Positions 55,788-56,492 of a stretch of DNA of 64,000 bases are shown piece after piece; within the stretch, counting starts at the first letter, position 1; every line of letters begins with the position of its first letter. The position numbers and the translations under genes were made by a program. The stretch comes from Chloroflexota bacterium (GTDB lineage: Bacteria > Chloroflexota > Dehalococcoidia > JABGRK01). The stretch covers positions 134,621 to 198,620 of the forward strand of contig JABGRK010000010.1 of NCBI GenBank assembly GCA_018648325.1, written 5' to 3'. Below the pieces are notes generated by a model. The model was not told the DNA's origin and made no database searches. It saw only the letters and a program-made list of their open reading frames with translations.

Positions 55788-56492
55788 ATGTTACGGAATA
55801 TTTTGGCAAGAATACATAACGATAATAAAGGCATCACCGGCCTTGAAACAGCTATCATACTAATTGCGTTTGTGGTTGTGGCATCGGTGTTTGCCTATAC
55901 GGTACTTTCCGCGGGCATCTTCTCGTCGGAGAAAGGCAAGGAGGCGGTATACGAGGGGTTGGATGAGGCAAGCAGTGGACTCGTGCTTCTGGGAATGCCC
56001 AGCTTATATACTCCCGATGACCTGTACCTTTACGGCGAAGTGCCTGCCGCCGGAACCAAAGCTACCAACACCGGCGCTGCCGTAGCTCGTGTCGATTTTG
56101 TGGTGGGACTTGCTGCCAGTAACGGCACACCCATGGATCTGTCTCCTTACTACGATTTCGATGCCAACGGTGCATTGCAGGTGGCAACCCATGATGTTCA
56201 TAAGCTTACTATTGATTATCAGGATGCATATAACTATTTTACCGAGTGCGTGTGGACTGCCAACTGGATAGGCCAGTCAAGTGGAGACTACGTACTGGAG
56301 AACGACGAACGTGTGGTCATTAGCGTATGGCTTACCGACTATAACTACGAGGCGGGTCAGGGACTATTCTACGCATTAGGCAACGCCGACCCTATGTTTA
56401 CCGATACCGATGATACAAACACAGCACTTCTTGATGTATATCATGATTTTACAATTCAGCTTAAACCTGTCAACGGTGCACACTGGTCATAA
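55788..56492 (+). CDS. Archaellin-like protein (archaeal flagellin homologue)
   Basis: 234 residues from ATG 55788, with AGGAG six bases before. Residues 1-15 form a class III signal peptide ending NDNKG, cleaved before ITGLE by a FlaK/PilD-type peptidase. The next ~30 residues ([20 protein letters not shown], then [12 protein letters not shown]) are almost identical in pattern to archaeal archaellins and form the filament core helix. The outer beta domain keeps archaellin motifs ([43 protein letters not shown]). It lacks the His-rich or N-glycosylation repeats I could recognise. No other archaellum gene is in the window. Confidence 0.88.
   Translation: [234 protein letters not shown]

What the first reader, a model, noticed from the sequence alone, without database searches (positions are those of the whole stretch)
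55788..56492. Orphan archaellin in a bacterial genome
Seen: class III signal peptide (KG/ITGLE), the archaellin core helix almost unchanged, and archaellin-type beta-domain motifs, with its own ribosome site and terminator. Known: archaella have been reported in some Chloroflexota. Here no arl motor, ATPase or peptidase gene is nearby. Inference: transfer from archaea or an old archaellum remnant; it may form a non-motile filament using the type IV pilus machinery.
Basis: partly seen in the sequence, partly recalled or inferred. Interest (0 to 1): 0.7.

Follow-up and report, generated by a model that had tools for sequence, protein, structure and literature searches.

The report
Decaying archaellin, stranded without its machine
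The gene is a real relative of the protein that builds the archaeal swimming filament (bacteria of this phylum are already known to have borrowed that filament), but this genome has lost every part of the machine that would build it, and the gene itself has begun to break, so it is most likely a molecular fossil and not a new filament.

Summary
In detail: window 55788-56492 (+) encodes an archaellin with a class III signal peptide (Pfam Arch_flagellin, E 4e-16). A screen of the whole genome finds no archaellum or type IV pilus ATPase, no platform protein over cut-off, no ArlF/G/H and no prepilin peptidase.

First, the gene is frameshifted about 19 residues before its end: the conserved archaellin tail (LVISRTAPGFLDTLTQLP, then stop) follows in another frame. 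It is the best match to the archaellin tail among 174,398 stop-terminated peptides in the genome. Second, in the other genome of the genus the same locus holds a relic: 29 aligned codons, a stop at codon 2, and the rest gone. That genome keeps a peptidase gene whose neighbourhood in our genome is a deletion scar.

Other motor-less genomes of the class also carry broken archaellins, while a motor-bearing relative has 12 of 12 intact. The best reading is vertical inheritance of the known Chloroflexota archaellum, loss of the machine, and erosion of a stranded archaellin. A one-base assembly error at the frameshift is not excluded.

The parts
55788..56492 (+). Archaellin reading frame as assembled (234 aa), ending in HWS instead of the conserved archaellin tail
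   Evidence: PF01917 E 4.1e-16, TIGR02537 over cut-off; only PF01917 match in the genome
55777..55781 (+). Ribosome binding site AGGAG, 6 nt before the ATG
   Evidence: read directly
55788..55832 (+). Class III signal peptide [15 protein letters not shown], predicted cut before Ile16
   Evidence: aligns with the mature N-terminus of the chain in PDB 9i5h, starting [23 protein letters not shown]; the Litorilinea ArlB is cut at Ile29 (PMC12488501)
55833..55970 (+). N-terminal assembly helix, identical or nearly so to archaellins of motor-bearing relatives
56478..56483 (+). Frameshift position: one base fewer than expected between ...KPVNGA and LVISRT...
   Evidence: frame bookkeeping read from the sequence
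56483..56539 (+). Out-of-frame ancestral archaellin tail LVISRTAPGFLDTLTQLP and its stop (56537-56539)
   Evidence: top-scoring of 174,398 stop-terminated 22-mers in the genome against a tail profile of 68 non-redundant homologues; a profile trained on 49 tails of other families gives the same score, 15.3
56569..56594 (+). Terminator-like hairpin AGGGCGGGA...TCCCGCCCT followed by TTT, 30 nt after the ancestral stop
54401..55583 (+). Upstream neighbours (NAD(P)H-oxidoreductase-like and GNAT acetyltransferase) that anchor the synteny with the congener's relic locus
   Evidence: 73% DNA identity over 906 bp to L116:3071-3972

Best explanation
This is a stranded, decaying archaellin. Shown: the gene is an archaellin of the Chloroflexota type; the genome screen finds no motor ATPase, no platform over cut-off, no ArlF/G/H and no class III signal peptidase; the archaellin's last 19 or so residues are out of frame; the congener holds a truncated relic of the same gene at the same locus. 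Inferred: the common ancestor of the two species carried an archaellum inherited within the phylum, with its archaellin at a solo locus and its PilD-type peptidase elsewhere. The arl cluster was lost, before or after the species split. Each species then eroded the leftovers in its own order: here the peptidase by deletion and the archaellin by a one-base shift, there the archaellin by a nonsense codon and a 3' deletion. As it stands the product, if made at all, would be an unprocessed membrane-anchored preprotein lacking its last beta strand, and would form no filament.
For: Family. No machinery: no T2SSE at E<=0.001, no A24 at E<=10, best T2SSF 0.074, below cut-off. Arl proteins from three relatives give no hit better than 3.7e-4 in 99.2% of the assembly, while ArlH/I/J hit control clusters at E<=1e-56. 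Frameshift. No frameshift seen in 92 conserved gene bins of the same genome, and the same tblastn approach shows the shifts in L073 and L074. Relic in the congener; local alignment score 55 against a maximum of 38 in 1000 shuffles; pS 0.61, pN 0.21 over 29 codons. Peptidase: intact A24 in G001; syntenic G000:C12 shows a moxR-histidine kinase fusion ORF and no peptidase. Parallel cases: orthologous solo archaellin intact in motor-bearing G189, broken in motor-less G361 and G365; 7 of 11 fetched archaellins broken in seven motor-less genomes against 0 of 12 in G189.
Against: The genome is 93.5% complete, so a missing contig could hold the motor and a peptidase. One base is a small basis for calling decay and could be an assembly error; it is the only lesion in an otherwise intact reading frame with a good ribosome site. 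In motor-less G302 all seven fetched archaellins away from contig ends are intact (one of its contigs begins at the first copy of a tandem array, so its motor may be unassembled), and G351 and G373 keep intact copies. Motor absence in G001 rests on a draft of 190 contigs.
Confidence: 0.8

Rival explanations
1. The archaellum is present and working, but its motor cluster and peptidase lie in the unassembled part of this draft genome, and the frameshift is an assembly error.
For: Completeness 93.5%; solo archaellin copies away from the arl cluster are normal in motor-bearing relatives such as G189; the rest of the frame is intact.
Against: Cluster and peptidase would both have to be missing, although in these genomes the peptidase lies outside the cluster (PMC12488501). 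The congener also lacks the ATPase over cut-off and its archaellin is a relic. The peptidase neighbourhood is assembled here without gaps and lacks it. No frameshift was seen in 92 tested gene bins.
Confidence: 0.12
2. The archaellin has been co-opted: it is kept as a processed or unprocessed surface or membrane protein, or as a filament built by machinery not recognised here.
For: The N-terminal core is unchanged and the ribosome site good. pN is well below pS against the congener's relic, so the gene was constrained for much of the divergence.
Against: No peptidase, ATPase or platform of any type IV filament family over cut-off. The constraint can date from before the loss of the machine. 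The tail conserved in nearly all relatives is lost, and the congener dispensed with the gene.
Confidence: 0.05
3. Recent separate transfer of a lone archaellin gene from an archaeon.
For: The family is archaeal in origin; the gene stands alone.
Against: Best matches are archaellins of the same bacterial class (phmmer 170 bits) against 53 bits for the best archaeal chain in the PDB (5tfy; archaeal genomes were not surveyed separately). The scan of genome contigs, which includes archaea, returned only two Chloroflexi MAGs. GC 48.7% against 46.7% genome-wide, similar to neighbours. The congener shares the locus as a relic.
Confidence: 0.02

Closest known systems
Archaellin ArlB of Litorilinea aerophila (PDB 9i5h, 9sie, 9sii; archaellum described in PMC12488501)
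   Same: Class III signal peptide, N-terminal helix and beta-domain motifs; best PDB match, E 1.9e-19 over residues 16-182. That 9i5h is the Litorilinea filament is inferred from the Ile start and the match to the paper; the tool names it only 'Flagellin'.
   Different: Litorilinea has the whole arl cluster and swims; here the genome screen finds no machinery and the tail is out of frame.
Solo archaellin copies in motor-bearing members of the same class (for example G189, single-contig genome)
   Same: Lone gene between unrelated housekeeping genes, same helix, archaellin tail consensus
   Different: G189 has arlB copies followed by ArlCDE-, G-, F-, H-, I- and J-like genes in one locus; all 12 of its archaellins are intact.
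Archaellin of Methanospirillum hungatei (PDB 5tfy; organism from memory)
   Same: N-terminal helix and first strand, E 3.6e-13; Methanotecta are the reported donors of the Chloroflexota archaellum (PMC12488501)
   Different: Archaeal, with a full archaellum; more distant than the bacterial archaellins.

Membership tests
Archaellin (ArlB/FlaB) | Profile match to the archaellin family | tested here: met
   PF01917 60.2 bits against cut-off 29.5; TIGR02537 33.2 against 20
Archaellin (ArlB/FlaB) | Class III signal peptide and hydrophobic assembly helix | tested here: met
   KG/[28 protein letters not shown], shared with motor-bearing relatives
Archaellin (ArlB/FlaB) | Complete beta domain with the conserved C-terminal strand (LxIxRTxP...L, stop) | tested here: not met
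   Out of frame in the assembly; the tail is recovered in another frame. Hence a decaying member of the family, not a working archaellin
Archaellin (ArlB/FlaB) | Beta-sandwich fold in three dimensions | tested here: inconclusive
   AlphaFold2 from a 3-row alignment, mean pLDDT 41.5; only the helix is confident
Archaellum (motility machine) | Motor ATPase ArlI and platform ArlJ | tested here: not met
   No T2SSE match; T2SSF only 0.074, below cut-off; tblastn of three ArlI/ArlJ pairs, best 0.94
Archaellum (motility machine) | ArlH and stator ArlF/ArlG | tested here: not met
   tblastn best 3.7e-4 for ArlH (short partial matches) and >=0.1 for ArlF/G; controls 1e-66 or better for ArlH
Archaellum (motility machine) | Class III signal peptidase (PibD/ArlK or PilD) | tested here: not met
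   No A24 match at E<=10 in the genome; syntenic site of the congener's A24 gene is a deletion scar
Type IV pilus / Tad pilus as substitute assembler | PilB/TadA ATPase, PilC/TadB platform, prepilin peptidase | tested here: not met
Archaellum (motility machine) | Filament and swimming | not testable with these tools
   needs a culture

The most novel reading that the evidence does not exclude
The frameshift is an assembly error and the archaellin is an intact, selected gene in a bacterium without any known type IV filament machinery, so that archaellins can serve as stand-alone membrane proteins or be exported by an unrecognised system.
Probability: 0.04. Interest if true: 0.7.

Novelty: new member of a known kind. 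Interest (0 to 1): 0.3.

Why it matters
Archaella in Chloroflexota were reported in 2025 as a full transfer from archaea. This locus and its relatives show the reverse process in the same lineages: loss of the machine, with archaellin genes left behind in different stages of decay. It gives a simple rule for annotation: a lone archaellin in a bacterial genome is not evidence of a filament, and its tail frame, a peptidase and an ATPase should be checked first. Three papers were found that hold 'archaellin' together with 'pseudogen', and by title and abstract none concerns bacteria; that is a limited search.

Tried and rejected
AlphaFold2 of the protein with two relatives gave mean pLDDT 41.5, so no fold search was run. 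No relative was found in viral contigs. The T2SSF hit at G000:C17:69628 (E 0.074, 13.6 bits) was taken as chance. The weak ArlH-like hit on C9 (3.7e-4, about 130 residues) was taken as another P-loop ATPase; it was not followed up. L003 and L004, named Chloroflexi MAGs with lone archaellins, were considered as further motor-less cases but both genomes hold pilus-type T2SSE ATPases, so they do not count. A tree of archaellins was not made: the conserved part is short and nothing in the conclusion depends on its branching.

Full report
WHAT IS THERE. Window 55788-56492 on the + strand reads as a 234-residue protein starting at an ATG with AGGAG six bases upstream. It matches Pfam Arch_flagellin at 4.1e-16 over nearly the whole profile and the archaellin/pilin N-terminal model TIGR02537 over its cut-off. 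The class III signal site (NDNKG/[40 protein letters not shown]) is nearly identical to archaellins throughout the same taxonomic class and to the mature N-terminus of the chain in PDB 9i5h.

WHERE IT LIVES. The window lies in contig C11 of a 2.0 Mb, 19-contig genome, 93.5% complete. Named relatives found by protein search are Chloroflexi MAGs. The class is one in which 70 of 393 sampled genomes carry PF01917. I take it to be Dehalococcoidia, from the published distribution of archaella and from a genome in the set whose length recalls a known Dehalogenimonas; this naming is inference and memory, not a test. Archaella in Chloroflexota are already known: 243 of 3,780 genomes, one transfer from Methanotecta to the ancestors of Dehalococcoidia and Anaerolineae, and a functional filament in Litorilinea aerophila (PMC12488501).

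NO MACHINE. In the whole genome there is no T2SSE (PilB/TadA/ArlI) ATPase at E<=0.001, no A24 peptidase even at E<=10, and no PilC/ArlJ platform over cut-off (best 0.074); the archaellin is the only PF01917 match. I then took 99.2% of the assembly in stretches and searched it with ArlCDE, F, G, H, I and J proteins from three motor-bearing relatives. Nothing better than 3.7e-4 appeared, while the same ArlH, I and J queries hit two control clusters at 1e-56 or better.

THE GENE IS FRAMESHIFTED. In nearly all of 85 relatives examined the protein ends in a conserved tail, roughly GAVLTIERTTPAAIDTVMNLN and stop. Here the frame ends KPVNGAHWS. In another frame, directly behind KPVNGA, the sequence reads LVISRTAPGFLDTLTQLP and stops at 56537-56539, at the right distance. 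Scored against a tail profile, this peptide ranks first of 174,398 stop-terminated 22-mers in the genome (15.3 bits; next 7.0), while the in-frame tail scores -56. A profile trained on other families only gives the same score for the tail. The spacing implies one missing base at about 56478-56483. A terminator-like hairpin at 56569-56594 lies 30 bases after the ancestral stop. An assembly error cannot be excluded. However, 92 conserved gene bins of the same genome showed no frameshift, with an approach that shows the known shifts in G365 but would miss very short tails.

THE CONGENER. The only other genome of the genus held here, G001, has the same upstream genes (73% DNA identity) ending in the same residues, EVRFQPEFADAM. 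About 175 bases later an archaellin relic begins. Twenty-nine codons align without a gap to our gene, including [14 protein letters not shown]; codon 2 is a stop, the cleavage glycine and TGLE motif are altered, and everything after codon 29 is gone. The alignment score of 55 exceeds the best of 1000 shuffles (38). Synonymous differences (pS 0.61) outnumber replacements (pN 0.21) per site, so the gene was under constraint for much of the time since the two species parted. G001 has no ATPase over cut-off but keeps one A24 peptidase gene with both aspartate motifs, at the edge of contig C44. The neighbourhood of that gene exists in our genome on C12. There the histidine kinase next to the peptidase is reduced to its 3' part and fused in frame to the 5' part of a moxR gene; the response regulator and peptidase are absent, and no assembly gap lies at the junction. 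This looks like a deletion that took the peptidase, assuming the G001 order is ancestral.

PARALLEL CASES. Of the archaellin-bearing genomes of the class, eight besides ours have no ATPase match over cut-off (G229, G302, G312, G351, G361, G365, G369, G373). In genus g138 one solo archaellin locus can be followed between conserved neighbours. It is intact in G189, which has a complete arl cluster on a single contig, and intact in motor-less G373. It is frameshifted near the end in motor-less G365, and has frameshifts and stops in motor-less G361. pS is about 0.5-0.67 and pN 0.09-0.18, again long constraint followed by lesions. Over all fetched loci not at contig ends, 7 of 11 archaellins are broken in seven motor-less genomes against 0 of 12 in G189 (chance of that split about 0.001, hypergeometric by hand). 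With G302, whose tandem array begins at a contig end and whose seven copies away from contig ends are intact, it is 7 of 18 (about 0.016). The sample is small and one genome carries the motor-bearing side. L003 and L004 do hold pilus ATPases and are not counted.

HOW IT MOST LIKELY WORKS. It most likely does not work. Shown: archaellin identity, no machinery found, tail out of frame, relic in the sister species. Inferred: the genus inherited the archaellum known from this phylum; the arl cluster was lost; the solo archaellin and the peptidase, lying elsewhere, outlived it and are being eroded separately in each species. If translated, the product would keep its signal peptide and sit in the membrane without its last beta strand.

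NOVELTY. The family and its presence in Chloroflexota are known. The relic state, the deletion scar and the stepwise decay appear not to be described in the papers I could search, but they are an expected aftermath of gene loss. Interest is modest: useful as a caution and as a small natural experiment, not as a new filament.

Noticed in passing
G000:C12:143981-144961 (L120, minus strand): In-frame fusion ORF of a truncated MoxR AAA ATPase with the C-terminal half of a histidine kinase: a deletion scar where the congener has a response regulator, histidine kinase and A24 peptidase.
   Followed up: yes
L104:4-726 (G001:C44): Intact-looking A24 prepilin peptidase in a genome without a detectable type IV filament ATPase over cut-off and with only a relic archaellin.
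   Followed up: partly
L004:7941-9050, L092:1751-2854, L093:4778-5848: Lone archaellin-like proteins of about 360 residues with an extra domain of 100 or more residues after the assembly helix, in genomes with pilus-type ATPases; possible adhesin-like filament subunits.
   Followed up: no
L096:13075-16563 (G112:C5): Two ArlI-like ATPase genes in tandem in one arl cluster.
   Followed up: no
L065:373-4322 (G302:C101) and L089-L091: Seven intact archaellin copies away from contig ends (over these loci and L066) in a genome of 94% completeness with no T2SSE ATPase match; probably an unassembled motor cluster, since contig C101 begins at the first copy of the array, but worth checking.
   Followed up: partly
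G339:C10:3737-4948 and G239:C63, C390 (open frames of 455-747 aa): Very long open frames over archaellin matches, in G339 two matches with frames of the same length; may be fused archaellins or simply long open frames in GC-rich DNA.
   Followed up: no
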